64,000 nt of DNA from Maribacter algarum (ex Lu et al. 2025) (nom. illeg.) (GTDB lineage: Bacteria > Bacteroidota > Bacteroidia > Flavobacteriales > Flavobacteriaceae). The position numbers and the translations under genes are program-made. Numbering within the stretch: position 1 is the first letter of the stretch; every line of letters begins with the position of its first letter. The notes under the pieces were generated by a model. The model made no database searches. It saw nothing but the letters and a program-made list of their open reading frames with translations, and was not told the origin of the DNA. This document shows positions 15,352 to 46,787 of the stretch, in pieces. The stretch lies in the NCBI GenBank assembly GCA_947495915.1, contig CANMAW010000005.1, forward strand, positions 124,001 to 188,000. The letters are read 5' to 3'.

Positions 15352-16007
15352 GAAATTTTAATCAGACTTAATGGTTAGTTCAATACTATATTGAAATGGT
15401 TTTCAGTCAAATAAGCATTGATAAATTGCAAGTACCGATATATCTTTAGTACCAAATAATAACTACGATAACGGTTAGTAAAAACTCGTTAATAGAACAA
15501 AATGTGCTAAGAAAATAAGATTACAAAATAGTCATCACTACATCAATCAAAATGAAACTATGTTATAGCTGTATTGAATGTAACTCATATGAAGTTTAAA
15601 AAGACCATACTAAGGTAAAAAGTACATGTTTTTGACCTTAATTTTATTCATCACCATACTTACGTAGTCTTTGATCGTTTTTTTCCTACAAAAAACAGCA
15701 TTTTATCGATTTAATGCTGTTAAAGACGCATTTCATCTATAAAATTTAACCTTTCACAACAATCTGAAATATCGAATGTTATAACTACAAGAATTTGCTA
15801 TGGCACCACCCTGTAAATTCAAAATGTTAATAAAAGATGTATTTCATCGAATTAATATATAATGAAAGATCCAACTAAAATGAATTAACCGTACCATAAT
15901 CAGAGCATTGTTTAAATCTGTCTGTTATCGATAAAATTAGCCCCTTTATCGAATAATAAAGACAAAAAGCCCAAATCAACAAGAACTCTCAAAATTATTA
16001 CCTACTT
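15352..16007. other. 656-bp intergenic region with repeated GCATTTCATCGA-like sites
   Basis: This gap lies between divergent genes (15351 minus, 16008 plus) and contains no open frame. Its right half holds at least five copies of a 12-mer motif, listed separately. An inverted repeat CAGCATT...AATGCTG (15696-15702 / 15713-15719) surrounds the first copy. I find no perfect TANNTTTG promoter for either gene. Confidence 0.65.
15698..15952 (+). promoter_or_regulatory. Cluster of GCATTTCATCGA-type operator candidates upstream of the 692-aa lipoprotein gene
   Basis: Copies are GCATTTTATCGA (15698-15709), GCATTTCATCTA (15728-15739) and GTATTTCATCGA (15839-15850), plus a weaker pair at 15920-15931 and 15941-15952 (both ending TATCGA, exactly 21 bp apart). 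The pair lies about 55-90 bp before the ATG at 16008. The same motif recurs at 18.2-18.3, 39.8 and 46.76 kb. Confidence 0.55.
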
Positions 16008-18086
16008 ATGAAGCTTAGCCCCTTAAACGTCAGTAAAATGACCCTACTTCTTTTGGTCTTTACCTTTATTTTTTCTTGCAGCAAAGACACCGATTTACTT
16101 TTAGATTCAGTAATTACTGAGACCGAGGTTTCAGTTGAAACTAGAAACTATACCGAATTACCTGCTGAAGAAGCTGGGTTTGTTCTTAGAACTTATACCT
16201 TCTCTCCTACCTACGATGCTTACCTTCAAGGTGAGGAAGGGCATAATCAAGATATTATTCGTTTACAAGAAGATGTTCGAACAAGTTTTTTGATGTTTGA
16301 CTTAAGTCAGGTAGATGGTCCTATTACTGATGCAGTTTTACAGTTTCATGTTGATAGCGATGAAGGAGATGGTGATATTAGAATTCACCAAGGTAGTTCA
16401 ACTAATTGGACAGAATACAATTTGAACCAGAACAATGCGCCAGCAATAACAGAAGAAATTGGCAGTATGAGCAAGGACTATCTAGTTGGTGATGCAGAAA
16501 AAGTAGCTCTTAAAGTGGAAAACCTAACCTCTAAAGAAACAACTTTAATTTTAAGTCATCAAAAAGGTAATGACTTGGCTTTTGCATCGAAAGAACATCC
16601 AAGAAATATTGGTCCGAAATTAATTGTCACCTATAAAACTGAAGAAGGCTCGCCAGCTATTGAACAAGAAGAAGTTTATCAAGAGGAAGAAGTACAACCT
16701 GAAGAAGAAGTAGATTCTTCTCAACCTAAAACTGACATTCCTCAGCCAGATTATTATGTTACGGTGAATGGAAATTCATCTAATGACGGTAAAACAGAAG
16801 CCACTGCCTGGAGTATTTCTCATGCTTTTGATAGAGCTGTTGCTGGTGATGTTGTTTATATAAAAGCTGGCAATTATGGTAATATTAATTTGATCGCCGA
16901 TAATTCAGGAACACCTGGCAAAAAAATAAGCTTTATTGGATATACAAATTCACCTGGTGACTTAAATAGTAGTAACGGCTCTACCTTTAATTACGGAGAT
17001 TCTGTTAATTCAAGTAAAATGCCATTAATCGAAGGAAGTCCGCTAAATGGTATTGGTACTGGTATTGGTATAACCGCAATTGAATCATACGTACACATCG
17101 AGAATTTTCAAATTACCAAATATGAATACGGATTGTTTGCAAAAGGAAATCACTCAACCTACAAAAATATTATTGTAACCAACGTTGGTAATTTTAATCC
17201 TGCACATTCTTATCCTTCAGCTACTAGTGATTCTCACTTAAATTATTCTGGAAATGGAATTGTAATTTCTGGTGTTCAAACTGAACTACTAAACTCATTC
17301 GTATTAAACGCTGGAGCACAAGCCATAACATTTAACAATAGTAGTGATATAATAGCATCCAATAATAAAGTATACTCTGATAATAACATTAATCCGACAG
17401 ACTACTACTTCCTAATTGGAGAAAACACTGTTAATTCCACCTTTACAAATACAACAGTTTATAGAGTTGGTGAATTAGAACACTTAGGACATGGCATTGT
17501 ATTTAAAGGAAACGGTTTAATAAACGGAAATATGGTTGATGGTTTTTCAATAACGAATACGGTTCTAGAAGCTCAATTTCCATATACACGAAATAACACG
17601 TTTAGAAATGGTACCATAACCAAGGAGGCACACATTAATGTTACAACCCCAAACGTATCAGGCATTAGGTTAGCCAATGGAACAGGTAAGAATATTTTTG
17701 AAGACATAGTACTAACGAACTGTAGTATAAACTTTCATGATTGGAAAGATGGACTTGCAGGTGATGTTAGTGATGCTAGTGATGATAATATTTTAAGACG
17801 ACTTACAGTAAAAGATGCTTATTCAGCAATAGCTTTTGCATATTTTCAAGTAGAAAACCATGCGAGCTCAGCAGACAACAACACCTTTGAAGACTGTGTG
17901 TTCACAAACATTGAACACCTATTTGAAGTAGATAGAGCAAATAGTAATACATTACTTAAAAATTGCACGATAAACGCTGTAAATAATTTAATGATTGAAC
18001 GTATACCAGGTGGGCCGTCGTATAGTTTAAATGCCAATTATGAAAATTGTACGTGGACCAATATTGGTTTCACTCCTCCAAATTAA
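16008..18086 (+). CDS. Surface lipoprotein with DNRLRE/CBM96-like domain and right-handed beta-helix
   Basis: This is a secreted, lipid-anchored protein with a fold typical of polysaccharide lyases, epimerases and depolymerases. The signal peptide ends in FIFSC (Cys24). Residues about 50-210 form a DNRLRE/CBM96-like beta-sandwich (SPTYDAYLQ, SFLMFDLS, DLAFASKEH, GPKLIVTY). An acidic linker (about 215-245) leads to a parallel beta-helix to the C-terminus (YYVTVNGNSSNDG, GDVVYIKAGNYG, many Asn-rich turns). The end, GFTPPN, is shared with the next gene. No type 9 secretion tail is visible. It may modify, trim or bind the polymer made by this locus; the reaction cannot be read from sequence. Confidence 0.82.
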   Translation: MKLSPLNVSKMTLLLLVFTFIFSCSKDTDLLLDSVITETEVSVETRNYTELPAEEAGFVLRTYTFSPTYDAYLQGEEGHNQDIIRLQEDVRTSFLMFDLSQVDGPITDAVLQFHVDSDEGDGDIRIHQGSSTNWTEYNLNQNNAPAITEEIGSMSKDYLVGDAEKVALKVENLTSKETTLILSHQKGNDLAFASKEHPRNIGPKLIVTYKTEEGSPAIEQEEVYQEEEVQPEEEVDSSQPKTDIPQPDYYVTVNGNSSNDGKTEATAWSISHAFDRAVAGDVVYIKAGNYGNINLIADNSGTPGKKISFIGYTNSPGDLNSSNGSTFNYGDSVNSSKMPLIEGSPLNGIGTGIGITAIESYVHIENFQITKYEYGLFAKGNHSTYKNIIVTNVGNFNPAHSYPSATSDSHLNYSGNGIVISGVQTELLNSFVLNAGAQAITFNNSSDIIASNNKVYSDNNINPTDYYFLIGENTVNSTFTNTTVYRVGELEHLGHGIVFKGNGLINGNMVDGFSITNTVLEAQFPYTRNNTFRNGTITKEAHINVTTPNVSGIRLANGTGKNIFEDIVLTNCSINFHDWKDGLAGDVSDASDDNILRRLTVKDAYSAIAFAYFQVENHASSADNNTFEDCVFTNIEHLFEVDRANSNTLLKNCTINAVNNLMIERIPGGPSYSLNANYENCTWTNIGFTPPN

Positions 18087-18113
18087 TCTAAATGATATTT
18101 AAATTTTCAAAAA

Positions 18114-18150
18114 GCCTACATGCTAATCTAAAGTTTGTAGGCATTTTTTT
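18114..18150 (+). terminator. Rho-independent terminator after the 692-aa lipoprotein gene
   Basis: GCCTACA (18114-18120) pairs with TGTAGGC (18136-18142) across a 15-nt loop, followed by A and seven T. The stem is short and the loop long, but position and T run fit, 27 bp after the stop codon. Confidence 0.65.
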
Positions 18151-18205
18151 GCAATAGAATGAACTTGCCCCAAAATTTTAAGAATAAACTATTCTGCCAA
18201 AAAGT

Positions 18206-18217
18206 GCATTTCATCGA
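18206..18217 (+). promoter_or_regulatory. Exact copy of the GCATTTCATCGA motif
   Basis: This is one of two exact copies in the window (the other is 39804-39815). No second half-site occurs 21 bp to either side. It lies about 85 bp left of the paired sites at 18291-18323. Confidence 0.5.
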
Positions 18218-18290
18218 ATTTTTCAATCTCTTATATAATTATTAAATAGTATTAGTTACGTTTGCAACTTCGAAATTATACGAAAAGTGT

Positions 18291-18323
18291 GCATTACAAC
18301 GTTATTAAAGTTCATTTCATCGA
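18291..18323 (+). promoter_or_regulatory. Paired direct-repeat operator candidate, 21-bp period
   Basis: GCATTACAACGT (18291-18302) and TCATTTCATCGA (18312-18323) start exactly 21 bp apart, two helical turns, as expected for a dimer or two subunits on one DNA face. The pair ends 77 bp before the -33 element of the promoter at 18401, a usual activator distance. A similar pair precedes asnB at 23688-23721. Confidence 0.55.
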
Positions 18324-18400
18324 AAAATGGGATAATTTGGCAATAAATTTATAAAGGCCAACTAAAATTTTTCTTGAAGCGAATGGTATTGTTGAAAATT

Positions 18401-18432
18401 TTGTAAAGTGCTCTATTAAAAATCTATTTTTG
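18401..18432 (+). promoter_or_regulatory. Consensus promoter for the 1073-aa lipoprotein gene
   Basis: TTG at 18401-18403 and TATTTTTG at 18425-18432 are 21 nt apart, a full match to the flavobacterial consensus. Transcription would begin near 18439, leaving an 80-nt leader before the ATG at 18519. This is one of the best promoters in the window. Confidence 0.72.
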
Positions 18433-18518
18433 GACTATTACCTACTAACAACATAAAAATTCGGTTTTACCTCCGAAACAACAAAAAATGAACAACTATT
18501 AATAAGTCCCGAATAGCA

Positions 18519-21500
18519 ATGAAATTTCATCCCACAAAAATTCACCTCATCATATTATGTTTTATTCTTAGTTCGATATCCTTAAATTTAGGATGTAGTA
18601 AAGACAACGACATATTGTTAGAGACCGTCGTTTCTGATTCGGCAGCTACAGTTGAGACAAAAGAACAAACAACAGATAATAGCACTGTAAACGAAGATGT
18701 TCAACAAGATGAATCAACCACTGATGAAAATACTATTGTTGAAAGTACTTTAGAGCTAAGAACCACTAGTTTTTCTCCTTTACATGATGCTCATGTTCAA
18801 AGTGGACGTGGGTACAATCAAAATATCATTCGTTTAGAAGAAGGAAGTCGAACCAGTTATTTAATGTTTGATTTAAGTCAAATTGCAGATATCTCAGGAA
18901 ATATTAAGCAGGCAACCTTACAGTTTACTATAAATAGTGATGATGGAAGTGGAACTGTTAATGTTTTTAAAGGTTCATCAAGCGAATGGACCGAAAATAC
19001 TTTATCTGATGAAAGCGCACCAGAAGCTATTGATAAAGTAGGCTCTATTGCTAAATCATATCTTATAGGTGAAACCCAAGCCATTGAACTCGACCCAACA
19101 CTTTTAGATGCAGAATTGAAAACACTTATTTTACAACATGAAAACGGTAACGACTTAGCCTTTGCATCAAAAGAACATGTGTCAAAAACCGGACCTAAAT
19201 TGGTAGTAAGTTATGAAGTGTCTGAATCTGCTTCGCAAATAGAAGATAATTCTCTGATTGAAGTTGAATCAGATGAGCCTGAGGATGTTGTAGTAGAAGA
19301 CCTTGATACAGTGGAAAGCGAAAATGCCCCAGTAAATGAAAGCACTGAAAACCAGGCACCAATAGCTATTGCTGATGCTGTACCTTCAAGTGGTAAAGCT
19401 CCTTTAGAAGTAACCTTTACTGGCGAAAATTCATCGGATGATACAAAAGTTGTTAGTTATGTTTGGAATTTTAACGATGGTGGTGCTACCAGTGCTGAGG
19501 CTAATCCCAAGTATACCTTCAACCAAGTTGGCACATACCTCGTTGAACTTACAACTACAGATGAAGAGGGTCTTAAAAGTACAGACCAAGTTACCATTAC
19601 CGTATCTGATGAAAATAATGAAGCTCCGGTTGCTGTTGTAAGCGCAACTCCTACAACAGGAGAAGCTCCATTAGAAGTGTCATTTAAAGGTAGTGACTCA
19701 ACCGATGACAATGCCATCTCCACTTATGGCTGGGATTTTAAAGATGGGTCAAAAACCAATGTAGCAGATTTTAATTATACCTATAAAACACCCGGCACAT
19801 ATGAAGCCGAACTCACAGTTACTGATGAAAATGGTCTGAGCGACGTTGAAACAATTACAATTGTGGTTGAAGAACCAAGCAATGATGGTCCGACCGCTGT
19901 AGTTAGTGCCAATGTTACCTCTGGTCCTGCCCCCTTAAATGTTCAGTTTATTGGCGACAAATCTTCTGATGATAAAGGAATTTATAGCTATGCTTGGAAT
20001 TTTAAAGATGGTAGCTCAAATGCCTACACGGCCAATCCTGCACATAGTTTTAATCAACCAGGAAGTTATGAAGTAGAACTGACGGTAAAAGATACTGATG
20101 GCGCGGAAGACACAAAATCAATAATGATTACGGTTAGTGCTTCAGAAAACAATGCGCCAAACGCTGTTGCCACAGCAAATGTAACATCTGGAAATGCCCC
20201 TCTTACAGTTCAATTTAGAGGTGACACTTCATCAGATGATAATGGAATTACAAGTTATTTTTGGAACTTTAAAGATGGAACTACTGCAAGCTCTGCTAAC
20301 GCAACTCATACTTTCACTCAACCCGGTAATTATACCGTAGATTTAACGGTAAAAGATGCTCAAAACCTTAGTAGCACAGCTAGTATGGTGATTCAAGTAA
20401 ACGCCAATAATACTTCAAGTACAAACAACCCACCAGGATATTACGTTTCTACATTTGGAAATTCAAGCAATAATGGTCTTTCTCCATCAAGTCCATGGAG
20501 TTTAGCACATGCATTTAATGTTGCTAAAGCGGGAGATGTGGTTTACGTTAAGGCTGGAAACTATGGCAACCTTCAACTAAGAACAAATAATACTGGTAAT
20601 AGCGGTAGTCCAATAAAATTTATTGGTTATACAAATAATCCAGGAGACGTTGCAAGTTCTAACGGTTCCACTTTTAATTATGGAGAAAACCTGAATGCAG
20701 GTAAAATGCCCTTATTACAATCGTATAATAGCCAAGGCACAGCAATTACTCTACATGATAGATTCATTCATGTTGAAAATTTTCAAATAACCGGTTACGC
20801 CGTGGGTATTCAAACAATTAATCTAGCAACGAATGCAACAATAAAAAATGTAATTATAACTAATGTTGGAAATCAATCTAGCGCTAGCTCTTATACTGGT
20901 GTTGGATTTAAGATAGAATCAAATAACGCCCTATTAGAAAATTGCTTTGTGCTAAACGCTGGTGCAGAAGCATTCAATTTATCTGATTCAGATTATTCTA
21001 GAGTAAATAATTGTAAAGTTTACGCAAATAATAACTCCAACCCTACTGATTACTACTTTTTACTTACAGGTGGTACAAACAATACAATTGTTGAAAATAG
21101 TTATGCTGAAAGAGAAGCTTATTTGAGTCATGGCGGACATGGTTTTGACATGAAAGACCTTGCTACAAATAATACGTTTAGAAATTGTACCGCAAAACGC
21201 ACAAACTTTGAATTAAATTTTTCTGGAGTTAAATATAACACGATCGTTGACTGTGCAATTTACGGTGTAAATACTTCGTCAGGAAATTGGCATTCGGTAA
21301 TGGCTATTTTTAATGGTGCTAACAATAATTTAATCAAGAACATGTACATTCAAGATACATGGGCTGCCATATCATGGGCCGATTATGACGATGGATTTGT
21401 AGGGCCAGGAGGTGATCGAGATGAGGTAAGTTTAGGTTATGATAATACCTTTGATGGAATTGTTGTAAAAAACACTAATAGACTTCTAAATATCGGTGGT

Positions 21501-21740
21501 GGTAATCAATTTGCTGCTGCTGCAAAGCGAAATAAACTAATTAACTGTCGCGTAGACAACTTTGAGTTTGTGGCAGTAACTCATTACAGAACTGAGGGAA
21601 TTGTAATTCAAAACTGTAATTTCTCAAATGGCCGCAATTTAGTTGTGGAGGCAATTGGCCAATATTTACCTTATAGCAAGTTCAATGTAAGTTGGATTAA
21701 CAATAGTTGGTCAAACGTAAGTTTCACTCCTCCGAATTAA
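18519..21740 (+). CDS. Surface lipoprotein with DNRLRE/CBM96-like domain, four PKD domains and beta-helix
   Basis: This is a paralogue of the preceding gene with an added PKD region. The lipoprotein signal ends in NLGC (Cys26), followed by SKDNDILLETVV, nearly the same as the neighbour. The DNRLRE/CBM96-like domain spans about 75-235. Four PKD repeats of about 85-90 residues follow (about 280-632), each with a core such as APLEVTF, SSDD, WNFNDG or WNFKDG, and a GTY/GSY/GNY-V-L-T strand. The C-terminal parallel beta-helix (about 640-1073) starts GYYVSTFGNSSNNG and ends SFTPPN like its neighbour. PKD domains usually act as spacers or binding modules in extracellular enzymes. Extracellular polysaccharide binding or processing is the likely role; catalytic residues are not identifiable. 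Confidence 0.84.
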   Translation: MKFHPTKIHLIILCFILSSISLNLGCSKDNDILLETVVSDSAATVETKEQTTDNSTVNEDVQQDESTTDENTIVESTLELRTTSFSPLHDAHVQSGRGYNQNIIRLEEGSRTSYLMFDLSQIADISGNIKQATLQFTINSDDGSGTVNVFKGSSSEWTENTLSDESAPEAIDKVGSIAKSYLIGETQAIELDPTLLDAELKTLILQHENGNDLAFASKEHVSKTGPKLVVSYEVSESASQIEDNSLIEVESDEPEDVVVEDLDTVESENAPVNESTENQAPIAIADAVPSSGKAPLEVTFTGENSSDDTKVVSYVWNFNDGGATSAEANPKYTFNQVGTYLVELTTTDEEGLKSTDQVTITVSDENNEAPVAVVSATPTTGEAPLEVSFKGSDSTDDNAISTYGWDFKDGSKTNVADFNYTYKTPGTYEAELTVTDENGLSDVETITIVVEEPSNDGPTAVVSANVTSGPAPLNVQFIGDKSSDDKGIYSYAWNFKDGSSNAYTANPAHSFNQPGSYEVELTVKDTDGAEDTKSIMITVSASENNAPNAVATANVTSGNAPLTVQFRGDTSSDDNGITSYFWNFKDGTTASSANATHTFTQPGNYTVDLTVKDAQNLSSTASMVIQVNANNTSSTNNPPGYYVSTFGNSSNNGLSPSSPWSLAHAFNVAKAGDVVYVKAGNYGNLQLRTNNTGNSGSPIKFIGYTNNPGDVASSNGSTFNYGENLNAGKMPLLQSYNSQGTAITLHDRFIHVENFQITGYAVGIQTINLATNATIKNVIITNVGNQSSASSYTGVGFKIESNNALLENCFVLNAGAEAFNLSDSDYSRVNNCKVYANNNSNPTDYYFLLTGGTNNTIVENSYAEREAYLSHGGHGFDMKDLATNNTFRNCTAKRTNFELNFSGVKYNTIVDCAIYGVNTSSGNWHSVMAIFNGANNNLIKNMYIQDTWAAISWADYDDGFVGPGGDRDEVSLGYDNTFDGIVVKNTNRLLNIGGGNQFAAAAKRNKLINCRVDNFEFVAVTHYRTEGIVIQNCNFSNGRNLVVEAIGQYLPYSKFNVSWINNSWSNVSFTPPN

Positions 21741-21773
21741 TCAACTATCTTATTGTTTAATAAAAAAAAAAAA

Positions 21774-21800
21774 ACGATGCTATTAAGTTAATAGCATCGT
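21774..21800. terminator. Bidirectional rho-independent terminator
   Basis: A 12-bp perfect stem (21774-21785 with 21789-21800) and 3-nt loop have a 13-A run on the left and a 9-T run on the right. It separates convergent genes ending at 21740 (+) and 21812 (-). Confidence 0.9.
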
Positions 21801-21811
21801 TTTTTTTTGAG

Positions 21812-23656
21812 TTACATTTTGTGATTTCGATCTAACACTGATTTCCCCCAAATATAGGGTGTAAGATCTCTCCAAGAATCTTGAGCCGTAACAAAGTTGT
21901 TACTTTTTCCACTGGCAATATTCATAATGTTAGATTTCAAGACTTCAGGATTGTCAACTAATGCCGATTCTAAAAATGATTTAGAATGAACAGTATCTGA
22001 AAACCACTCATTCAAATCATTTTGCATCCAATCTACGATTGGAGAAGTAAATCCAATTTTAGATTTACGCCAAGTTACTTCTTTAGGCAGGTAAGGATCT
22101 ATAGCATCACGAATTAACTTTTTAGTATACCCCCCTCCCATTTTACTAGTATAAGGAAGTGAATTTACAAAACTAACAAGCCTATGATCCATAAACGGCA
22201 TTCGAATTTCTACTCCGCTAATCATAGCATATCTATCATAATTACGCAGCAAAGTCGGTAAAATGGTTTCATTAAATATTACATACAAATGTTTCGATAA
22301 ATTATCTAACTTTTTGAAGTTAGGATGATCATGATCTCTAGATATTCGATCTTTACCAAGAATCTTTTTAGCAGCAGTCTTAACCATGAAATTAGCATAT
22401 AATTTCTTATAATTAATTCTATCGAATTGATCACTAGTATTCAGAGTGCCTTGATAAGTATCTAAGATGTCTTTAATATTCTTATAATTAAACTTACTAT
22501 CCCAAAGAGCTTCAATTAATCCATTATATCCGCTAAACAATTCATCAGCCCCATGGCCATCTAAAGTAACCGTTACCCCGTTGTTTTTAACAGCCTCATA
22601 TATCATTATCATTGGTATAGGAGTTGTTATATAAAGATCTTCAAACAAATAAAAATATTCTTCCAACTTACCCCAATGCTGTAATGGTTCAACTTCCATG
22701 AAAGTTCCTTTAATACCCAAATGGTCTGTTACCATTCTAGCATATTTCGACTCATCCATCGGCGTTTCTGGAAATGTTGCAACAAATGCATGTTGCCAAT
22801 CTTTTGAATAACTATTGTTATTTTTAGATAGATGAGCCATTGCGCCAATTGTAGCACTACTGTCTAAACCACCACTTAGGGCTGTACCAATAGCAACATC
22901 AGATCTCATTCTTAATTTACAAGAATCTAAAAACATTGATCTAAACTGTTCTACTTGATCTTCATATTTTTCGGGTACCTCAATCAAATGATCTAATGTA
23001 TTCCAATATCGTTTTAGTGAGAGTTTTCCATCTCTATACCAACCGTTGTGGCCATGCGGAAACCTTTTAATTCCCTTAATTAAACATTTATCAGTGGTTT
23101 CGTAAGCGAAGATATTTCGTTTCATCCAATCAAAATCTTCTGAAACCTCTAGTTTATTAATAAAAGGATAGATAGCTTTCATTTCTGAAGCAAAAATAAA
23201 TCGCCCTTCTATTTCGGCATAAAACAATGGTTTTTTTCCATACCTATCTCGTGAAAAGAAAAGTTCATTTTTGTGATTATCCCAAATTGCGAAGGCCCAC
23301 ATTCCATTGAACTTAAGAACACAATCTTCACCCCATTCAATATAAGACTTTAGTAAAACTTCCGTGTCAGAAGATGAGTTAAAACTGTGACCCTTTTTTG
23401 AAAGTTCATTCTTTAACTCTAAAAAATTATAGATTTCTCCGTTAAGTACAATGGTATACCTGCGGTCTTCATTACTCATTGGCTGGTGACCATTTTTAGA
23501 TAAATCTAGTATAGAAAGTCTTCGATGACCCATGGAGATTTTACCTCCAACATCTTCAATTCCATAGCTATCAGGACCCCTGTGAGTCAAGGTATCTAAT
23601 GCATGTTTAAACAAGTTGTGTTCTGTTGTTGGCAATGTTCCAAATATACCGCACAT
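21812..23656 (-). CDS. asnB: Asparagine synthase (glutamine-hydrolysing)-like amidotransferase
   Basis: The AsnB family transfers ammonia from glutamine to an adenylated carboxylate. The N-terminal class II glutamine amidotransferase domain begins MCGIFG with the nucleophile Cys2 and contains THRGPDSYG and MGHRRLSILD. The C-terminal synthetase domain has the ATP motif SGGLDSSAT (near residue 265) and VTWRKSKIGFTSP. The length (614) is normal. It lies inside the polysaccharide locus, so the substrate may be a uronic acid of the polymer rather than aspartate; homologues in the Francisella and Pseudomonas O-antigen loci are assigned to uronamide formation. Sequence alone cannot separate the two. 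A weak pair of motif sites lies upstream at 23688-23721. Confidence 0.9.
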   Translation of the reverse strand: MCGIFGTLPTTEHNLFKHALDTLTHRGPDSYGIEDVGGKISMGHRRLSILDLSKNGHQPMSNEDRRYTIVLNGEIYNFLELKNELSKKGHSFNSSSDTEVLLKSYIEWGEDCVLKFNGMWAFAIWDNHKNELFFSRDRYGKKPLFYAEIEGRFIFASEMKAIYPFINKLEVSEDFDWMKRNIFAYETTDKCLIKGIKRFPHGHNGWYRDGKLSLKRYWNTLDHLIEVPEKYEDQVEQFRSMFLDSCKLRMRSDVAIGTALSGGLDSSATIGAMAHLSKNNNSYSKDWQHAFVATFPETPMDESKYARMVTDHLGIKGTFMEVEPLQHWGKLEEYFYLFEDLYITTPIPMIMIYEAVKNNGVTVTLDGHGADELFSGYNGLIEALWDSKFNYKNIKDILDTYQGTLNTSDQFDRINYKKLYANFMVKTAAKKILGKDRISRDHDHPNFKKLDNLSKHLYVIFNETILPTLLRNYDRYAMISGVEIRMPFMDHRLVSFVNSLPYTSKMGGGYTKKLIRDAIDPYLPKEVTWRKSKIGFTSPIVDWMQNDLNEWFSDTVHSKSFLESALVDNPEVLKSNIMNIASGKSNNFVTAQDSWRDLTPYIWGKSVLDRNHKM

Positions 23657-23687: not shown

Positions 23688-23721
23688 ACAATACAACGAT
23701 TATTAAGATGAATTTTGTTGA
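23688..23721 (+). promoter_or_regulatory. Weak paired operator candidate upstream of asnB
   Basis: ACAATACAACGA (23688-23699) and GAATTTTGTTGA (23710-23721) are 22 bp apart. The surrounding 40 bp align with 18291-18330, including TACAACG, TTATTAA and TTGAAAAATGG or TCGAAAAATGG. It lies 32-65 bp before the start of the minus-strand asnB gene, in opposite orientation to it. Confidence 0.35.
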
Positions 23722-39758: not shown

Positions 39759-39789
39759 TTGGACACAATAAATCCAAATTGTACATTTG
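39759..39789 (+). promoter_or_regulatory. Consensus promoter upstream of the large HAD gene
   Basis: TTG at 39759-39761 and TACATTTG at 39782-39789 are 20 nt apart, a full match to the flavobacterial consensus. Transcription would begin near 39796, about 220 nt before the coding start. The -7 element overlaps the left half of the operator-like repeat. Confidence 0.6.
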
Positions 39790-39815
39790 GTCGTATATAA
39801 ATAGCATTTCATCGA
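39783..39815 (+). promoter_or_regulatory. Paired operator candidate with 21-bp period, overlapping a -7 element
   Basis: ACATTTGGTCGT (39783-39794, 8 of 12 matching) and the exact GCATTTCATCGA (39804-39815) start 21 bp apart. The left half-site covers seven of the eight bases of the -7 element and the right lies at or after the predicted start, a position more suited to repression than activation. Confidence 0.55.
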
Positions 39816-40016
39816 TGATTTTAAGTTAACCAAGAATCATTTGGCTCTTATACCCCATAATTATGAACACCTATCAGCCCTCAGTAGTTAAAAGTTTTCT
39901 TGAAAATTTGAATGAGAAAATTGTAATTTGGCTATATAATAGGTCACAGATCTTATTTACATTACTGGTTTAGTACGAATTAAGTATATTTATTGCCTAA
40001 CCATTAAACCTTTCCC

Positions 40017-42065
40017 TTGGCAAGCTTGATTCCTAAAATCGAGAAGATTTCTTCTGGTAAAATCATTTTCACTGATTTCTTTGATACGTTAGTTCACAGA
40101 AAAGTTCACCCTAATTATACTTTAAAATTATGGGCAAAATTGATGATCCGAGAATTAGCCATCCATATCTCAGTCAATGAATTATATACTATAAGGACTG
40201 ATGCTCTTCAATTTTTATCAGATAAGCTGAAAGAAAATTTATTAGAAATTCCCTATGAATTTTTAATTAAAGAGGTACACAATCGATTGCTAAACGCCAA
40301 CCTAATCACTACTAAAAACCTTGAAGAGTTTTATAAAATTTTTGAGCAAGCAGATTATGTTGCTGAAGTTTCAGTGCAATTCAAGAATAATCTAATAATT
40401 AATGATCTCATTAGTTTAAAAAATCAAGGGTATCAAATTTTTCTCATTACCGATTTCTTTTTTTCGAAAGAGCTCATGTTGCGTATAATAGATCATCACG
40501 ACCTCACGAATTTATTTGATGAAATTTTTGTTTCAGCTGATGTACGCAAAAGTAAAGAAACAGGCTCTATCTATCCCTTTGTTCTTAGAGAGCTAAATGT
40601 TTCGGCTGAAGACGCAATTATGATTGGGGATAATAAGGCTAGTGACATTATCAATTCTGGCCATTGCGGTATACGAAGTATTCATACAAAAAACCTTTCG
40701 CATCATCGGCGCAATAAGCTTAATTTATTCGGTAGTGATGATCATAGTTTTGAAAAAGTTTGTACTCAACTTGAAAAAAAATGTCAGAAAAGTAATTTTC
40801 CGTTCAGTGAATATATCATTCATTTCTATTTCTTTACCGAACGCCTATACACCAAAGCAATAGAGCAAGGTATTAACGATTTATTTTTTTTAGCACGAGA
40901 AGGTCAATATTTAAAAACATTATTCGACCTGTATCAAGAATTAAATCAATTTACCGATTCAAAAAAAATTAAAACTCATTATCTTAAAGCATCAAGACAA
41001 TCGGCGCAAAAACTAGCTTTACAGCCACTAAACGAAGAAAATTTCGAAGGTTTCGCAAAGATACATGGCGAAATGTCGCTTTATCATTTTTTACAGTGGT
41101 TTTTATTTTCTGAGGACATTCAAGGCAAAATCATATCTGAAATTGGTGTCGACCCTAATGAAACACATCATAATATCTTTCATTCAGAGGTAATGGGAAA
41201 ATTAAAAATGAACCCCACTTTTGTAAAAGAATATGAAGCTACACGTGTAAATCAAAGAAATGCATTTAATGTATATTTAAACTCTTTTGGAGTTAATTTT
41301 GAAGCAGACGGAATCACTTTAGTTGATGTTGGTTGGGGAGGAACAATGCAAGAAAGTTTGTATCACTTTTTAGAGGAAAAAATTCCGGTTACTGGTTATT
41401 ACATCGGACTAAAAGAAATCTATAACATACAACCAGACACCAATAGGTATGGTTTAAATTTCTCAATCTATCCCTGTAGAGATCGTTCTTTTGATATTTT
41501 AAAAGCAAACGGACAACTTTATGAACAACTATTAGCTGCTTCTCATGGTAGTACCTTAGGCTATACCCTGATTGATGATGTTGCTGATACGATAGAATTT
41601 CATGAAGAAAATGAAAAATATGTTTTTGACACCTATATATCAGACATTCAAGATTTTATGCTTCAGGAATTTGAAAATTTCTTCATTAATTTAAGATCTA
41701 TCAATTATTCTCAAAAATTAGCACAAACCTTTATGACCGATATGGCTCTTCGTGTAGGTATATTAGGAAAAAAGAAAAAAATTAAATTTATAGAAAACCT
41801 ATCAAAAGGTTTTTATCAAAATGTGGGTGAAAATAAAATTGGCCTCAATTACAAGCCAAGTCAATTAAATATGCCCAAAAGAAACTTTTTAAAAACATTT
41901 ATTCGATCTCCAGAAAAGGTTTTTAGATATCTGGTTAAAATAAAGCCGTTTATGTACGCCAAAGGTATTTATTGGGTTTCATGGCCTATAAACCTAACCT
42001 ATTATTATATCAAATTTAATTTTTGGGTTAAAAAACGGTTTTTTCCCAAAAAACTAATACGATAA
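40017..42065 (+). CDS. Large HAD-domain protein with uncharacterised C-terminal domain
   Basis: A 682-residue protein whose first 240 residues form a HAD hydrolase: motif I FTDFFDTLVHRKVHP, motif II FLITDFFFSKELM, motif III SADVRKSKETGSIY, motif IV IMIGDNKASDI. The remaining 440 residues carry LFFLAREGQYLKTLFDLYQE (about 290) and TLVDVGWGGTMQESL (about 440), blocks I have seen in HAD fusions of other surface-polysaccharide loci but for which I know no proven activity. A basic C-terminus has two hydrophobic aromatic stretches that may touch the membrane. The start is TTG (40017 or 40026), since an in-frame stop lies 3 codons upstream. It is the last gene of the polysaccharide region. Confidence 0.78.
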   Translation: MASLIPKIEKISSGKIIFTDFFDTLVHRKVHPNYTLKLWAKLMIRELAIHISVNELYTIRTDALQFLSDKLKENLLEIPYEFLIKEVHNRLLNANLITTKNLEEFYKIFEQADYVAEVSVQFKNNLIINDLISLKNQGYQIFLITDFFFSKELMLRIIDHHDLTNLFDEIFVSADVRKSKETGSIYPFVLRELNVSAEDAIMIGDNKASDIINSGHCGIRSIHTKNLSHHRRNKLNLFGSDDHSFEKVCTQLEKKCQKSNFPFSEYIIHFYFFTERLYTKAIEQGINDLFFLAREGQYLKTLFDLYQELNQFTDSKKIKTHYLKASRQSAQKLALQPLNEENFEGFAKIHGEMSLYHFLQWFLFSEDIQGKIISEIGVDPNETHHNIFHSEVMGKLKMNPTFVKEYEATRVNQRNAFNVYLNSFGVNFEADGITLVDVGWGGTMQESLYHFLEEKIPVTGYYIGLKEIYNIQPDTNRYGLNFSIYPCRDRSFDILKANGQLYEQLLAASHGSTLGYTLIDDVADTIEFHEENEKYVFDTYISDIQDFMLQEFENFFINLRSINYSQKLAQTFMTDMALRVGILGKKKKIKFIENLSKGFYQNVGENKIGLNYKPSQLNMPKRNFLKTFIRSPEKVFRYLVKIKPFMYAKGIYWVSWPINLTYYYIKFNFWVKKRFFPKKLIR

Positions 42066-42090
42066 AAATTACCAAACATAATAGTTGTAA

Positions 42091-42564
42091 CTATTTCACC
42101 GCAGAACCTACAACCACCTGCTTTTCAGAAATTGGCATTTTGTAAACACAAAACGGACTCGCTTCTATGTTTTGATTTTTAGATTTTTCATTACCGTCAG
42201 AAAACTGAGTTAACATTATTTCAGAATCTGTCTCTTCTAAGAATTTCAAGGTTAAGGCACTATTTTGTGGATGCCGGCCACTACAATACACAACTACCAT
42301 TTCTTTTGTGAAGTCAATAACTGGCAAAGGGATTCTAGGCTTACGAGTTAAATTAATCTTGGAATAAAAGCTTTTTAAACGCTTTTCATCTTTAAACACC
42401 ATAATTTCTCTCGCATCAAAACTGCTATTTTCTTCAACTAATAATAATTCTAACTGTTGTTCATTCTCCATGGTTGTTTGAACGGTTTCATTATTCAATG
42501 TCACTTTCTTTTGCCCATTACAAGACAACAAAAACAAAGAAACTACAATAGCTATTAATTTCAT
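42091..42564 (-). CDS. Small SPII lipoprotein of unknown function
   Basis: A 157-residue predicted lipoprotein: signal peptide KLIAIVVSLFLLSC with Cys15, then NGQKK. The mature part is a small beta-rich domain with EMVVVYCSGRHPQNSALTL, weakly like PrcB C-terminal-type domains (a VVV strand followed by a turn), but I would not rely on that. Its ATG overlaps the stop of bshA by one base (TAATG), so the two are co-expressed on the minus strand. It converges with the large HAD gene ending at 42065. Confidence 0.75.
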   Translation of the reverse strand: MKLIAIVVSLFLLSCNGQKKVTLNNETVQTTMENEQQLELLLVEENSSFDAREIMVFKDEKRLKSFYSKINLTRKPRIPLPVIDFTKEMVVVYCSGRHPQNSALTLKFLEETDSEIMLTQFSDGNEKSKNQNIEASPFCVYKMPISEKQVVVGSAVK

Positions 42565-43709
42565 TAACTGAACGTTTTATTAAACCTACTTTCGTATGCT
42601 TTTTTATAAACTGCTTCGTATAAAGGAAGCACATTTAATATATCAAATTTTTCTGCAGATTTCACGGCGTTAGCTTTAAACTTTTCTAATACAGCATCGT
42701 CACTTAAAATTTTAAGTGCATTTTCAGCCATTTCATCTACATCACCAACATCACTCAAAAACCCTGTTACTCCTTGTTCATTTACTTCCGGTATACCACC
42801 GGTATTACTTGAAATTACCGGTACTTTATTCATCATAGCTTCTAAAGCTGCTAAACCAAAACTTTCAGATTCCGAAGGAAGTAAAAACAAATCTGAAAAA
42901 CAAAGAATACGGTCGATCTCATTACTATTTCCCAAGAAAATAACGCGTTCAGAAATACCCAATTCTTCACATAACTTTTCAGCCCCAGCCTTTTCAGGCC
43001 CTTCTCCTACCATAACCAATTTAGCGGGTACTTCTTTTTGAATTTTATTAAAAATTTGCACCACATCAGGAATTCGTTTTACCTTTCGAAAGTTGCTGAT
43101 ATGAGTTACAATTTTCTCATGATCTTCCGCCATCAAAGAACGTTGGCAATCTGTAAATGAACTGCTATACTTACGCTTATCGATAAAATTTGGTATCACT
43201 TCAATCTCGTTTCGAATATCAAAAATATCTAAGGTTTGCGCTTTCAAACTTTCTGAAACAGAAGTAACTACGTCCGATTTATTTATACTAAAAGTTACTG
43301 CTGGTTTATAAAAAGGATGTTTACCAACTAAAGTAATATCAGTGCCATGCAGCGTGGTAATCATAGGAATATGAATATTTTCTTCAGCCAACATTTTCTT
43401 GGCCATATAACCTGCATATGCATGTGGAATGGCGTAATGAACATGTAACAATTCAATGCCATACAACTTAATAGTATCTACTAATTTACTTGATAAAGCC
43501 AACTCATAGGGTTGATATTTAAAAAGGGGATATTCAGGTACATGTACTTCGTGAAAATGAATTTTATTATTCAATAACCCCAGGCGCACAGGTTGGCGAT
43601 AGGTTACAAAATGTACTTCATGCCCTCTATCAGCTAAAGCTATTCCTAATTCTGTGGCTACAACCCCACTTCCACCAAAGGTTGGGTAACATACTATTGC
43701 TATTTTCAT
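42564..43709 (-). CDS. bshA: N-acetyl-alpha-D-glucosaminyl L-malate synthase (bacillithiol synthesis)
   Basis: A GT4 enzyme that joins GlcNAc from UDP-GlcNAc to L-malate, the first step of bacillithiol, the low-molecular-weight thiol of many flavobacteria. The N-terminus KIAIVCYPTFGGSGVVATEL and HYAIPHAYAGYMAKKML are diagnostic of BshA, with the GT4 C-terminal motifs VMVGEGPEK, LLPSESESFGLAALEAM and ISSNTGGIPEV. The frame is open to a TTG at 43712; I chose the ATG at 43709. The length of 381 is typical. Confidence 0.96.
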   Translation of the reverse strand: MKIAIVCYPTFGGSGVVATELGIALADRGHEVHFVTYRQPVRLGLLNNKIHFHEVHVPEYPLFKYQPYELALSSKLVDTIKLYGIELLHVHYAIPHAYAGYMAKKMLAEENIHIPMITTLHGTDITLVGKHPFYKPAVTFSINKSDVVTSVSESLKAQTLDIFDIRNEIEVIPNFIDKRKYSSSFTDCQRSLMAEDHEKIVTHISNFRKVKRIPDVVQIFNKIQKEVPAKLVMVGEGPEKAGAEKLCEELGISERVIFLGNSNEIDRILCFSDLFLLPSESESFGLAALEAMMNKVPVISSNTGGIPEVNEQGVTGFLSDVGDVDEMAENALKILSDDAVLEKFKANAVKSAEKFDILNVLPLYEAVYKKAYESRFNKTFS

Positions 43710-43796
43710 CAATCAAATTTAGTGAATACTAGTAATAAGTCGAGCTAGTAGATTTTTATTTACAGAAAATTTAAGAGAAATGGTAGTATAAAAAGT

Positions 43797-46709
43797 CTAA
43801 TTTTCTATGGCATCATAAATCGCCTTTTGTATTCTAGTTCTCAAACCAGATTTAACTAATAAGGTATTAGATGCTGTTGGGTATGTACGATTCGAAAGAA
43901 AAACATAAACAATTTCTTCTTCAGGATCTGCCCAAGTATAGGTACCCGTAAACCCACTGTGACCGAAACTTTTTCTAGAAACACAACCACAGGTAGGGCC
44001 TTTGTCACTTAATTGAGGTTTGTCGAAGCCAACTCCTCTCCGTACTTTTTTATCACAGAAGTAACAGGTGTTAAATCGTTTTACTGTTCTACTCTCTAAA
44101 AAGCGAACCCCACCATATGTACCATTTTGAAGGTACATTTGCATAATTTTGGCAACATCATTAGCATTACTAAATAAACCCGCATGACCCCCTACGCCGC
44201 CTTGCATGGCTGCCCCCATATCATGAACATAACCTTGAATAGTTTGATATCGATAATATTTATCTTCTTCTGAAGGTACTATTCTGTTTTTAGGAAACTT
44301 CTCTAAAGGATTATAGCCTGTACTTGTTGCCCCAATGCGACGATAAACAAAATCGTCTGCAAGTTCATCTAAAGGTTTCTTTTTATAGTCTTCAATGTAT
44401 TTTTTCATCACATAATAAGCAACATCACTATACCTATATCGGTTAGATTTTAAATCTTGCCTACCTATACGGTTGTAAATAGAATCTCTATATACATCAG
44501 TTAAATACAGATTGTTTGCCACTTTAGTCGAGAAACCATCAATGGGCTTAGATCGATAAAACTCTGTTGAAGGTTTTCTTTTGTCATCTAAGGTGCTTAC
44601 ATAAAATGCGATCCAAGCAGGCAGCCGACCATAATGTGATAAGGCTTTCAAAACCGTAACATTTTTTAATTCGGTATCTGCATAGGCAGGCACTAAATCA
44701 GAGAATGTGTTATTTAGTGCTATTTCACCATCTTCTTCCATTTTCATTACCAATGGTAGTGTGCCCAAAATTTTGGTTATTGAAGCCAAATCATAGATGT
44801 GTTCTGGAGTAATTTTTTCTTCGGATTTATAGGTAGGCTTACCAAATCCTTTGTTGTAAATCACCTTTCCTTTTCGGGCTATTAATACTTGTGCTCCAGG
44901 ATACATCAGTGAATCTAAACCGTCTTGTACTAGTTCATCTACTTTTGCCAACTTTTCAGGGTTAAACCCCACACGCTCAGGAAAACTATATCCCAGTCTT
45001 AATAAAGACTTTAATTGAACATTTGTGTTCACAGGAAAATCAGGATGTGAACTTACTGGTAAGACTCCCTTTGCCGGAATTGCTCCAAAAATTAATTGCG
45101 CAGTTTTTTCTTGGGCAAGTTTACTATTTTGATGTGCTACCACTACCCCATCAATATGTTCAAAACTAGCTATACCTGAAAGCGCATATGGTTTTGCGAA
45201 AACCGAAAGAATTAAATTAGAAGATCTTGATTTTGCGATTTCCTCTAGCCACTGTTTTTCCTTGTTAGAAAAACTATAACTTTTCCATGGCGTGTCTGTG
45301 TTTTTATGTAAACCTACTATGATTAGATTATACTCTTTCAATTTACCGTTTAAAGTAAAAACATCTTTGGCATTAACTTGTGTAACATTGGCGTACTTAT
45401 TAAGTTCTTTTATAAAAGGTTTACTACCCGAATCTCCAAATTTGATATAAGCTATTTTCTTGTTTTCAAGATTCTTAATACCCATGAGGTAGTAAGAATT
45501 TTTAACCACAGTTATGGCATTTTCAATAGCCTCTTCATATATCAAATCATCATTTACTGAATTTAAATCTTCATATAAGTTATTTAGACTTATTGGCTTG
45601 TATTTGTTTAAACCAACCTTGTATTTTGCCAACAATATTTTTTTTACTGAATGTGCTAGTCGACTTTCAGAAATTTTTCCTTTTTCGTACGCCTTTGTTA
45701 ATTTTTCTTTAGCTTTTATAACCTCAGTTGGCATTAATAACATATCGTTACCAGCCAAAAAAGCATTCAATTCAACATCTCCATTTTTACCGGTATCTGA
45801 AACACCTTTCATATTCAAAGCATCTGTAAAAACCAATCCTTTAAAACCCAATTGTTCTTGCAAAACACCCGAAATAATTTGCTCTGACAATGATGAAGGT
45901 AGTTCCTTTTTAAGTTCTAATGCCGGTACCTCTAAGTGAGCGACCATTACACTACTCAAACCAGCCTTAATTAATTTTTTATAAGGATACAATTCTAAAC
46001 TATCGAGGCGAGTTCTATTAAACGAAATAATAGGCAATCCCTTATGTGAATCTGTGGCGGTATCACCGTGACCCGGAAAATGTTTTCCACTTGATAAAAC
46101 TCCAGCACTTTCCATTCCAGTCATAAATGCAATTCCTTTTTGGGTTACATTATCTCTATCCTCTCCAAAAGATCTACTACCTATTATAGGATTTTTAGGA
46201 TTGGTATTTATATCAATATCTGGGGCAAAATTAATATGAACTCCTAAGCGTTTTGCATGAATTCCAATTTGACGACCAACTTTTTCAACTATTGAATTAT
46301 CAGCAATAGCTCCTAAGGTCATATTATACGGAAATGCATAAGTAGAGTCTAAACGCATTGATAACCCCCATTCTGCATCCATTCCAATCATCAAAGGAGT
46401 TTTTGATGCCTTTTGATAATCATTGGTTAATATTGCCTGCCGAACTGGACCTCCTGTGGAGAAAATCACCCCACCTATATGTTCTTCTTTTATTAAATCT
46501 AGAATCTTATCAGTACTACTTTTAGATTGATCAGATGCTACGCTAACCATAAATAGCTGACCAAGCTTCTCATCTAGAGACATGGATTCATACTTCGCAT
46601 CAACCCATTTTTTTTGAGCTATGCTATCTTTTGTAATCAAGGGGTTACCTTGCCCATAAATGGCATTAACTGTAAGAAAAAATAAAGCGAGGGCTTTTAA
46701 AAATTGCAT
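43797..46709 (-). CDS. GH3 beta-N-acetylglucosaminidase fused to serine hydrolase (beta-lactamase-like)
   Basis: A secreted or periplasmic two-enzyme fusion of 970 residues. After a signal peptide (ending near Gly19-Gln20) the GH3 domain carries the NagZ-type loop KHFPGHGDT at 209-217 and the nucleophile Asp296 in VFTDALNM. A Rossmann-like C-terminal GH3 domain follows (about 400-560). From about 580 a class C beta-lactamase/PBP-like domain shows the SxxK motif SITK (Ser643, Lys646), YSD near 748 in place of YxN, and HSGFTGT near 920. Such fusions occur in Bacteroidota and are thought to act on muropeptides. Two motif copies 21 bp apart precede it (46755-46787). The gap to bshA is 87 bp. Confidence 0.92.
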   Translation of the reverse strand: MQFLKALALFFLTVNAIYGQGNPLITKDSIAQKKWVDAKYESMSLDEKLGQLFMVSVASDQSKSSTDKILDLIKEEHIGGVIFSTGGPVRQAILTNDYQKASKTPLMIGMDAEWGLSMRLDSTYAFPYNMTLGAIADNSIVEKVGRQIGIHAKRLGVHINFAPDIDINTNPKNPIIGSRSFGEDRDNVTQKGIAFMTGMESAGVLSSGKHFPGHGDTATDSHKGLPIISFNRTRLDSLELYPYKKLIKAGLSSVMVAHLEVPALELKKELPSSLSEQIISGVLQEQLGFKGLVFTDALNMKGVSDTGKNGDVELNAFLAGNDMLLMPTEVIKAKEKLTKAYEKGKISESRLAHSVKKILLAKYKVGLNKYKPISLNNLYEDLNSVNDDLIYEEAIENAITVVKNSYYLMGIKNLENKKIAYIKFGDSGSKPFIKELNKYANVTQVNAKDVFTLNGKLKEYNLIIVGLHKNTDTPWKSYSFSNKEKQWLEEIAKSRSSNLILSVFAKPYALSGIASFEHIDGVVVAHQNSKLAQEKTAQLIFGAIPAKGVLPVSSHPDFPVNTNVQLKSLLRLGYSFPERVGFNPEKLAKVDELVQDGLDSLMYPGAQVLIARKGKVIYNKGFGKPTYKSEEKITPEHIYDLASITKILGTLPLVMKMEEDGEIALNNTFSDLVPAYADTELKNVTVLKALSHYGRLPAWIAFYVSTLDDKRKPSTEFYRSKPIDGFSTKVANNLYLTDVYRDSIYNRIGRQDLKSNRYRYSDVAYYVMKKYIEDYKKKPLDELADDFVYRRIGATSTGYNPLEKFPKNRIVPSEEDKYYRYQTIQGYVHDMGAAMQGGVGGHAGLFSNANDVAKIMQMYLQNGTYGGVRFLESRTVKRFNTCYFCDKKVRRGVGFDKPQLSDKGPTCGCVSRKSFGHSGFTGTYTWADPEEEIVYVFLSNRTYPTASNTLLVKSGLRTRIQKAIYDAIEN

Positions 46710-46754
46710 AAAGAAATAGGTCTAGGGCTTTAACTTAAAAGGTTTCAATTTATT

Positions 46755-46787
46755 GCATTTCATCGGATTTATCATGCATTTCATCTT
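46755..46787 (+). promoter_or_regulatory. Paired operator candidate with 21-bp period upstream of the GH3 fusion
   Basis: GCATTTCATCGG (46755-46766) and GCATTTCATCTT (46776-46787) share ten identical bases and start exactly 21 bp apart. They lie 46-78 bp before the start of the minus-strand gene at 46709. The motif strand is opposite to the gene, unlike the sites at 15.7-18.3 and 39.8 kb. The gene on the other side ends at 46873, so the GH3 fusion is the only gene these could control. Confidence 0.6.

What the first reader, a model, noticed from the sequence alone, without database searches (positions are those of the whole stretch)
15698..46787. A recurring intergenic 12-mer (GCATTTCATCGA) with 21-bp periodicity suggests an undescribed polysaccharide-locus regulon
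Seen directly: exact copies at 18206 and 39804; near copies at 15698, 15728, 15839, 18312, 46755 and 46776; weaker ones at 15920, 15941, 18291, 39783, 23688 and 23710. All are intergenic. Five pairs start 21 or 22 bp apart (15920/15941, 18291/18312, 39783/39804, 46755/46776 at 21; 23688/23710 at 22). At about one-third G+C, two exact 12-mers in 64 kb are unlikely by chance (roughly 0.01 expected, my estimate). Direct half-sites two turns apart resemble sites bound by LytTR-type and some response regulators. The downstream genes (two beta-helix lipoproteins, asnB, a HAD fusion, a GH3 hydrolase) are all linked to the cell surface. No regulator gene lies in the window.
Basis: partly seen in the sequence, partly recalled or inferred. 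Interest (0 to 1): 0.72.

Follow-up and report, generated by a model that had tools for sequence, protein, structure and literature searches.

The report
Flavobacterial LytTR-type tandem operator and regulon
A short repeated DNA word between genes of this marine bacterium is very likely the docking site of a LytTR-type gene switch; it is shared by many Flavobacteriaceae and often stands before genes for surface and secreted proteins.

Summary
The window has seven copies of GCATTTCATCGA with at least 11 of 12 bases, all non-coding; simulated non-coding DNA gives 0.005. Three solid pairs lie 21 bp apart; two claimed pairs are weak.

TGCATTTCATCGA occurs in 14 of 14 genomes of the genus (107 sites, reversed control 2) and 105 of 149 of the family (442 against 26), but near background in 192 genomes of other families (36 against 19). 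In 397 family genomes, 30 of 61 tandem pairs have a period of 20-21 bp. Of 80 GH3/beta-lactamase promoters, 48 carry the site, in one orientation.

The half-site matches, 9 of 9, the box of E. coli LytTR regulator YpdB; yhjX carries it twice, 21 bp apart. The ten family genomes without LytTR lack the site. Best reading: a LytTR tandem operator, probably activating. The regulator is unproven; an orphan receiver-LytTR clade and P0002, beside a TPR kinase with sites in its upstream region, are candidates.

Targets are wider than polysaccharide genes: surface lipoproteins, MreB, DUF1800, T9SS cargo, gldK in some genera. Known mechanism, apparently undescribed regulon.

The parts
15698..15709 (+). 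half-site GCATTTTATCGA (11/12) upstream of lipoprotein gene 16008-18086
15728..15739 (+). half-site GCATTTCATCTA (11/12), 30 bp after the previous one
15839..15850 (+). half-site GTATTTCATCGA (11/12), about 158 bp upstream of 16008
   Evidence: (L079)
15920..15952 (+). weak pair (8/12 + 8/12, 21 bp); not significant alone
16008..18086 (+). putative target: 692-aa protein with CBM96 domain (lipoprotein by the look of its start)
   Evidence: homologues with a site upstream in cluster CL0
18206..18217 (+). exact 12-mer, 302 bp upstream of 18519
   Evidence: (L059)
18291..18323 (+). tandem operator GCATTACAACGT-N9-TCATTTCATCGA, period 21
18519..21740 (+). putative target: 1073-aa protein with four PKD domains and a sub-threshold beta-helix match
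   Evidence: member of cluster CL0
23688..23721 (+). weak pair (8/12 + 8/12, 22 bp) upstream of asnB; not significant alone
39783..39815 (+). tandem operator ACATTTGGTCGT-N9-GCATTTCATCGA, period 21
40017..42065 (+). putative target: 682-aa protein with N-terminal HAD domain, about 200 bp downstream of the operator; orthologue promoters not tested
   Evidence: L081
46755..46787 (+). tandem operator GCATTTCATCGG-N9-GCATTTCATCTT, period 21, in reverse orientation relative to its target
43797..46709 (-). putative target: GH3 / beta-lactamase-domain fusion (970 aa); site found upstream of 48 of 80 orthologues

Best explanation
The 12-mer is the half-site of a tandem operator for LytTR-domain response regulators: two direct copies of (T)GCATTTCATCGA, one often degenerate, start 20-21 bp (two helical turns) apart on one DNA face just upstream of the promoter. 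A phosphorylated receiver-LytTR protein would bind both half-sites and most likely activate transcription. Shown here: motif, spacing, non-coding location, conservation, strong enrichment in the family, identity of the half-site and spacing to the E. coli YpdB operator, and absence of the exact motif from the LytTR-free genomes examined. Inferred: binding by LytTR proteins, activation, and which protein binds. Candidates: (i) an orphan receiver-LytTR clade (own members L018 and L022); (ii) P0002 (L023), next to a TPR/HisKA_2 kinase gene (P0001) whose upstream region carries three tandem sites scoring 7, 11 and 10 of 12, a likely feedback loop. Several paralogues may share the site.
For: Enrichment: genus 14 of 14 genomes, 107 sites against 2 for the reversed control; family 105 of 149, 442 against 26; 192 genomes of other families 36 against 19. 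Location: 24 of 29 own-genome sites non-coding, 86 of 105 unique sites in the genus by a crude ORF caller. Spacing: 61 exact pairs in 397 genomes, 11 at 20 bp, 19 at 21 bp, 35 at 19-22 bp, with 31 periods allowed; of 21 such pairs looked at in 20 loci, 19 are non-coding. Conservation: 48 of 80 GH3/beta-lactamase promoters carry at least 11/12, all in reverse orientation, 43 of the 48 with the far edge at -53 to -58 of the aligned start; none forward; none in 4000 shuffles. LytTR identity: YpdB binds a direct repeat of GGCATTTCAT (PMC4847170, passages); read in E. coli, yhjX has GCATTTCAT beginning 113 and 92 bp before its start codon, each after a G, period 21. Co-distribution: the ten family genomes without LytTR have no exact site (17.4 Mb); rho 0.52 across 149 genomes, 0.40 after genome size. 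Promoter geometry: TAnnTTTG-like boxes are commonest at offsets 53 and 43 from same-orientation sites (6 and 5 of 46, mean 0.84 per offset). Feedback: tandem sites upstream of P0001 and in the stretch after the LytTR gene at 11 of 26 P0002 orthologue loci.
Against: No binding or expression data. LytTR genes are not generally close to sites: 1 in 60 family loci holding 62 sites; in the genus loci only P0002 itself (L074) and one gene inside a stretch that I had fetched to reach it (L155). No single LytTR clade explains the distribution: P0002 orthologues (59% identity or more) are in 26 of 149 genomes while 105 have sites, and G120 has an 88% orthologue but no exact site. Members of the L018/L022 clade occur in 5 of the 14 motif-negative genomes examined, such as G020 and G065. 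LytTR-free genomes are small (1.3-2.7 Mb). Eight genomes with 12 or more LytTR domains have no exact 13-mer (G029, G046, G091, G106, G120, G129, G131, G155). Many sites have no good partner: 23 of 62 family sites have one of at least 8/12. Genomes, and some pairs, are related, so counts are not independent. The GH3 sites overlap the presumed -33 region, which would also suit a repressor.
Confidence: 0.8

Rival explanations
1. The direct repeat is bound by a transcription factor of another class (an OmpR/PhoB-type regulator or an unknown flavobacterial factor), and the match to the YpdB box is coincidence.
For: No single LytTR gene tracks the motif. A regulator gene that looks OmpR/PhoB-like by eye lies next to a site and a small T9SS-cargo-like gene in three genus loci, L111, L125 and L154.
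Against: 9 of 9 half-site identity and the same 21-bp period as the E. coli YpdB operator; exact motif absent from the ten LytTR-free genomes; repeats of 9-11 nt with 11-13 nt spacers are described as typical of LytTR sites (PMC4847170, passages). That OmpR-type repeats have 10-11 bp periods is recalled knowledge.
Confidence: 0.12
2. Several LytTR paralogues with overlapping specificity share the site, so there is no single regulon but a family of overlapping ones, some wired to TPR kinases. This refines the best explanation rather than opposing it.
For: Own genome has 12 LytTR genes. Sites stand upstream of TPR kinases with three different phospho-acceptor families: P0001 HisKA_2, L279/L282/L296 HisKA, and L286 HisKA_3, the last with its site 571 bp away. 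Different LytTR clades occur in motif-positive genomes with few LytTR genes.
Against: The site is very uniform across the family (one exact 13-mer in 105 of 149 genomes), which suits one dominant regulator.
Confidence: 0.4
3. The site acts as RNA or is a dispersed repeat: a 5'-UTR element or a mobile palindromic repeat.
For: Some sites lie only 7-40 bp upstream of called starts.
Against: No Rfam family in the window at gathering thresholds. Sites occur in both orientations relative to downstream genes, 59 same and 44 opposite. Of 86 intergenic genus contexts, 55 remain after similar flanks are removed. The pair spacing is direct and close to two helical turns.
Confidence: 0.03
4. Composition or shared ancestry only; no function.
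For: Orthologous promoters share descent, so cross-species counts are not independent.
Against: Reversed-pattern controls are about 6 to 53 times lower inside genus and family (61 against 10, 442 against 26, 107 against 2); non-orthologous promoters carry it (55 non-redundant contexts in the genus).
Confidence: 0.02

Closest known systems
E. coli YpdA/YpdB (PyrS/PyrR) operator in the yhjX promoter
   Same: Half-site GCATTTCAT identical 9 of 9; direct repeat; period 21 bp, read directly in MG1655; LytTR-domain regulator (PMC4847170, passages).
   Different: Described as having one direct target gene in E. coli (PMC4847170, passages); here many sites per genome. No own LytTR protein groups closely with YpdB in the tree. 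The half-site extends by CGA.
LytTR operators in general (AgrA, ComE, VirR, BtsR; details partly recalled)
   Same: Two direct repeats of 9-11 nt with 11-13 nt spacer (PMC4847170, passages); AgrA sites lie immediately upstream of its P2 and P3 promoters (PMC4227749, passages).
   Different: Different sequences; the best-known are virulence, competence or bacteriocin systems of other phyla (recalled).
PorX/PorY regulation of the type IX secretion system
   Same: A two-component system said to take part in T9SS gene regulation (abstract starts of PMC4800418 and PMC10951265 in the listing).
   Different: The PorX paper PMC10951265 holds no LytTR term (listing); the present site is upstream of gldK only in some genera. 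PorX sites were not compared.

Membership tests
LytTR-type tandem operator | two direct repeats of about 9-11 bp, period about 20-22 bp | tested here: met
   30 of 61 family-wide pairs at 20-21 bp; three solid pairs at 21 bp in the window
LytTR-type tandem operator | half-site resembles a box of a characterised LytTR protein | tested here: met
   9 of 9 to the YpdB box, same period in E. coli yhjX
LytTR-type tandem operator | LytTR proteins encoded in genomes with the site | tested here: met
   own genome 12; 139 of 149 family genomes have LytTR, and the ten without it have no exact site
LytTR-type tandem operator | position immediately upstream of the core promoter | tested here: inconclusive
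   -7-like boxes are commonest at +53 and +43 of same-orientation sites, with others at +22 and +45; no phase for 20 opposite ones; no transcription starts are known
LytTR-type tandem operator | bound by a LytTR protein | not testable with these tools
   needs EMSA or DAP-seq
YpdA/YpdB system | orthologue of YpdB in the genome | tested here: inconclusive
   YpdB sits on its own long branch among the 66 LytTR rows
YpdA/YpdB system | 5TM-5TMR_LYT/GAF histidine kinase partner and yhjX-like target | not tested
   no search was made for this kinase family or for yhjX; P0001 is a TPR/HisKA_2 kinase
   putative targets include MreB, DUF1800, an Ldh/Mdh-type dehydrogenase, 5-FTHF cyclo-ligase, Por_Secre_tail proteins and GldK

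The most novel reading that the evidence does not exclude
A Flavobacteriaceae-wide global LytTR regulon coordinates the cell envelope: cell shape (MreB), an envelope hydrolase (GH3/beta-lactamase fusion), surface lipoproteins and T9SS cargo, and in some genera the T9SS core gene gldK, under an orphan receiver-LytTR regulator and TPR sensor kinases that the site itself feeds back on. The DNA code is the one that E. coli YpdB reads.
Probability: 0.35. Interest if true: 0.72.

Novelty: new member of a known kind. Interest (0 to 1): 0.55.

Why it matters
LytTR regulators are abundant in Flavobacteriaceae (139 of 149 genomes; counts up to 31, the most the tool scored). Eight literature searches listed no paper on a LytTR operator or regulon in the family. 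The lists were capped at 15-20 titles (one search listed 20 of 75, 15 of 723, 20 of 43, 20 of 56, 20 of 131), the library holds only open-licence PMC papers, and of the Flavobacterium papers that mention LytTR (10 held, 9 listed) I saw passages of four, which only count or name LytTR proteins. So 'undescribed' is provisional. A common operator that can be read by eye makes the regulon testable in any cultured species and gives a handle on how these glycan-degrading, gliding bacteria control surface and secreted proteins. That YpdB and a distant phylum use the same nine bases suggests conserved or convergent recognition by the LytTR fold.

Tried and rejected
Tried without success. (1) Regulator by proximity: LytTR genes are not enriched near sites. 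(2) Regulator by phylogenetic profile: P0002 orthologues in only 26 of 149 genomes. A tree of 66 LytTR rows (53 from 8 motif-positive and 14 motif-negative genomes with few LytTR genes, 12 own, and YpdB; one fetched row, L380, gave no protein) put a member of the L018/L022 clade in 7 of 8 positives, including G059 and G104, whose only LytTR it is; the eighth, G100, is an 87% complete genome. The clade also holds rows of 5 of 14 negatives, and its sister group rows of 4 more. G059 counts as positive through one tandem pair only; it has no exact 13-mer. (3) gldK as a family-wide core target: rejected. Of 30 gldK loci with the best family score, 1 had a pair scoring 17 or more; of 20 others 11 had one scoring 18 or more, but 5 of the 20 were picked because a site was listed there and most of the rest because their genomes are rich in sites or poor in LytTR; the own genome has none. 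(4) RNA element: no Rfam hit. (5) Literature: searches for the motif listed one relevant paper, on YpdB.

Rejected claims: the 15920/15941 and asnB pairs as real operators; 'polysaccharide' as the label of the regulon. Orthologue promoters of the HAD gene and asnB were not tested. The ORF caller behind the non-coding counts is crude (longest ORFs first) and called at least the YraN/DUF1800 promoter site coding in the own genome (L038), which works against the claim. The high core information is inflated, because only GH3 loci with at least 10/12 were aligned; the unbiased figure is 48 of 80.
Full report
WHAT WAS CHECKED. The window is G000 C5:124001-188000, of a 4.17-Mb genome in 35 contigs. 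Three genomes of the same genus group have contigs of exactly the lengths of named records: G001 C15, 418200 bases, as in Maribacter algarum RZ26; G007 C14 and G013 C7 as in uncultured Flavobacteriaceae records. All 14 listed copies are present and outside called ORFs. Seven copies score at least 11/12, all non-coding, against 0.005 expected in Markov-simulated non-coding DNA. Three pairs with two good halves lie exactly 21 bp apart: 18291/18312, 39783/39804 and 46755/46776.

THE MOTIF BEYOND THE WINDOW. The exact 13-mer TGCATTTCATCGA occurs 7 times in the own genome with no match of the reversed control, in 14 of 14 genomes of the genus (107 sites, control 2, my sums), and in 105 of 149 genomes of the family (442 sites, summed; control 26 by my count of the table). 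In a class-wide draw of 198 genomes, the 192 outside the family had 36 sites against 19 for the control by my count. The strong signal was thus seen only in the family; but only one of the 192 is of the same order, so other families of the order are untested. In the own genome 24 of 29 sites with at most one mismatch are non-coding, in loci that are about 15% non-coding (reversed control 6 matches against 29); in the genus 86 of 105 unique sites are non-coding by a crude ORF caller. The shorter 11-mer CATTTCATCGA is less clear-cut: 14 against 6 in the own genome.

SPACING. Without using the window, a search for two exact CATTTCATC words with periods of 13-43 bp in 397 family genomes gave 61 pairs in 53 genomes (control 10 by my count): 11 at 20 bp, 19 at 21 bp, 3 at 19 and 2 at 22; 7 at 36 bp include repeats that look coding. 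One of the 61 is the window's own 46755/46776 pair, and some pairs come from two species of one genus, so they are not independent. Of 21 pairs with periods of 19-22 bp looked at in 20 loci, 19 are non-coding. Around exact sites in the genus (55 non-redundant), a second direct half-site scoring at least 8/12 was found 6 times at +20, 5 at -20 and 4 at +21, against 0 or 1 at the other seven listed offsets; but by mean score the opposite-strand offset 21 ranked first, so this test alone is modest.

CONSERVATION. The GH3/beta-lactamase fusion gene (43797-46709) was sought in named genomes; the best 80 loci were kept by the tool. In the 110 bp before the aligned start, 48 of 80 carry a match of at least 11/12, all in the orientation seen in the window and 43 of the 48 with the far edge at -53 to -58; none is forward, and none occurred in 4000 shuffles. 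Loci clearly without it include L211 and L216 (Arenibacter) and L229 and L231 (Maribacter). In 57 loci chosen for a match of at least 10/12, mean information is 1.79 bits over the core (inflated by that choice), 0.81 in the 20 bp on the gene side, 0.93 beyond them, 0.46 and 0.36 on the far side and 0.15 further off; the block on the gene side reads TAAGTT in gene sense and starts 17 bp after the site. Other sites recur before homologous genes: MreB (8 genus loci), DUF1800 with YraN divergent (9 loci, genus plus two other genera), PKD/CBM-type surface proteins (9 target genes of one homology cluster, which holds both of the window's lipoproteins, the second as a target), an Ldh/Mdh-type dehydrogenase, 5-FTHF cyclo-ligase, NeuD-type acetyltransferase, Nramp transporter (L408; L045 by eye), and small proteins ending in a T9SS sorting domain.

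gldK. Sites upstream of gldK (TIGR03525) were first seen in L303, L325 and L392. A deliberate test gave 1 pair in 30 gldK loci chosen by score and 11 in 20 others, of which 5 had been picked for a known site and most others for being rich in sites or poor in LytTR. The own genome has none. All 11 are in reverse orientation. So gldK is a target in a subset of genera, not a core target.

WHAT READS IT. LytTR sites are described as two repeats of 9-11 nt separated by 11-13 nt, and YpdB of E. coli binds a direct repeat of GGCATTTCAT (PMC4847170, passages). Read directly, the E. coli yhjX upstream region has GCATTTCAT, each after a G, beginning 113 and 92 bp before the start codon, a period of 21. 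The flavobacterial half-site is identical over GCATTTCAT. Across 149 family genomes the number of sites follows the number of LytTR domains (rho 0.52; 0.40 after genome size). The ten genomes without LytTR lack the exact site, and among genomes of at most 2.8 Mb, 1 of 21 with at most two LytTR genes and 10 of 18 with three or more have it (p 0.0008). Species are related, so these p-values are optimistic. Eight genomes with 12 or more LytTR domains and no exact site show that the rule is not strict.

WHICH LytTR. The own genome has 12. P0002 (C3:343.4 kb) is a receiver-LytTR protein; the next gene, P0001, is a TPR/HisKA_2 kinase whose upstream region carries three tandem sites at 21 and 20 bp, scoring 7, 11 and 10 of 12. 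Of 26 P0002 orthologue loci of 59% identity or more (own included), 11 have a pair or a full site in the stretch after the LytTR gene (no null was run for these loci, and the next gene was not annotated in each). But 105 genomes have sites and only 26 have a P0002 orthologue. The L018/L022 clade of receiver-LytTR proteins (called orphan because the flanking ORFs of the own two do not look like kinases, by eye) is present in 7 of 8 motif-positive genomes with few LytTR genes and is the only LytTR of G059 and G104, but also in 5 of 14 motif-negative ones. A receiver-only gene whose receiver is nearest this clade has a one-mismatch site 54 bp upstream. G104 has only one site, which chance could give. 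I rank the L018/L022 clade about level with 'several paralogues', P0002 next.

HOW IT WORKS, MOST LIKELY. For sites in the same orientation as the gene (46 non-redundant), boxes like TAnnTTTG (the Bacteroidota -7 element, recalled) are commonest at offsets 53 (6) and 43 (5), with 5 at 22 and 4 at 45, mean 0.84 per offset. Taking the +53 group, the two half-sites fall near -60 and -38 of a start point, which suits an activator; this is inference. For the opposite orientation no clear phase was seen (20 cases). GH3 sites lie over the presumed -33 region, so repression there is not excluded.

VERDICT. A real, conserved LytTR-type tandem operator and an apparently undescribed regulon of Flavobacteriaceae; the mechanism is of a known kind. 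The label 'polysaccharide-locus' is too narrow.

Noticed in passing
window 8702-8965 and 11676-11941: A diverged direct duplication (175 nt at 83% and 50 nt at 76%) repeats the end of the gene 7736-8800 and the stretch after it, so the stretch before 11965 looks like a remnant of a segmental duplication.
   Followed up: partly
L157 968-2935 (own genome, C3) and L279, L282, L296, L286: Sites stand upstream of TPR sensor kinases with three different phospho-acceptor families (HisKA_2, HisKA, HisKA_3), as if the site fed back on kinases generally.
   Followed up: partly
L068 1567-1983 (own genome, C1:1198.3 kb): A receiver-only protein, nearest to the receiver of the L018/L022 LytTR clade, has a one-mismatch site 54 bp upstream.
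   Followed up: partly
L274 4079-4324 and L319 2719-2991: Two small proteins (81 and 90 aa) that look alike by eye, with cysteines and histidines near the start, lie 69 and 166 bp downstream of sites in two genera; the first has no Pfam match.
   Followed up: no
L060 (same site as L012) and L048: The exact 13-mer also lies inside a gene, in the same sequence context in two genomes of the genus; probably coincidence kept by protein conservation.
   Followed up: no
window 43797-46709: The GH3 target is fused to a C-terminal beta-lactamase-family domain; near full-length relatives were found in Maribacter, Flagellimonas, Allomuricauda, Arenibacter and Zobellia.
   Followed up: no
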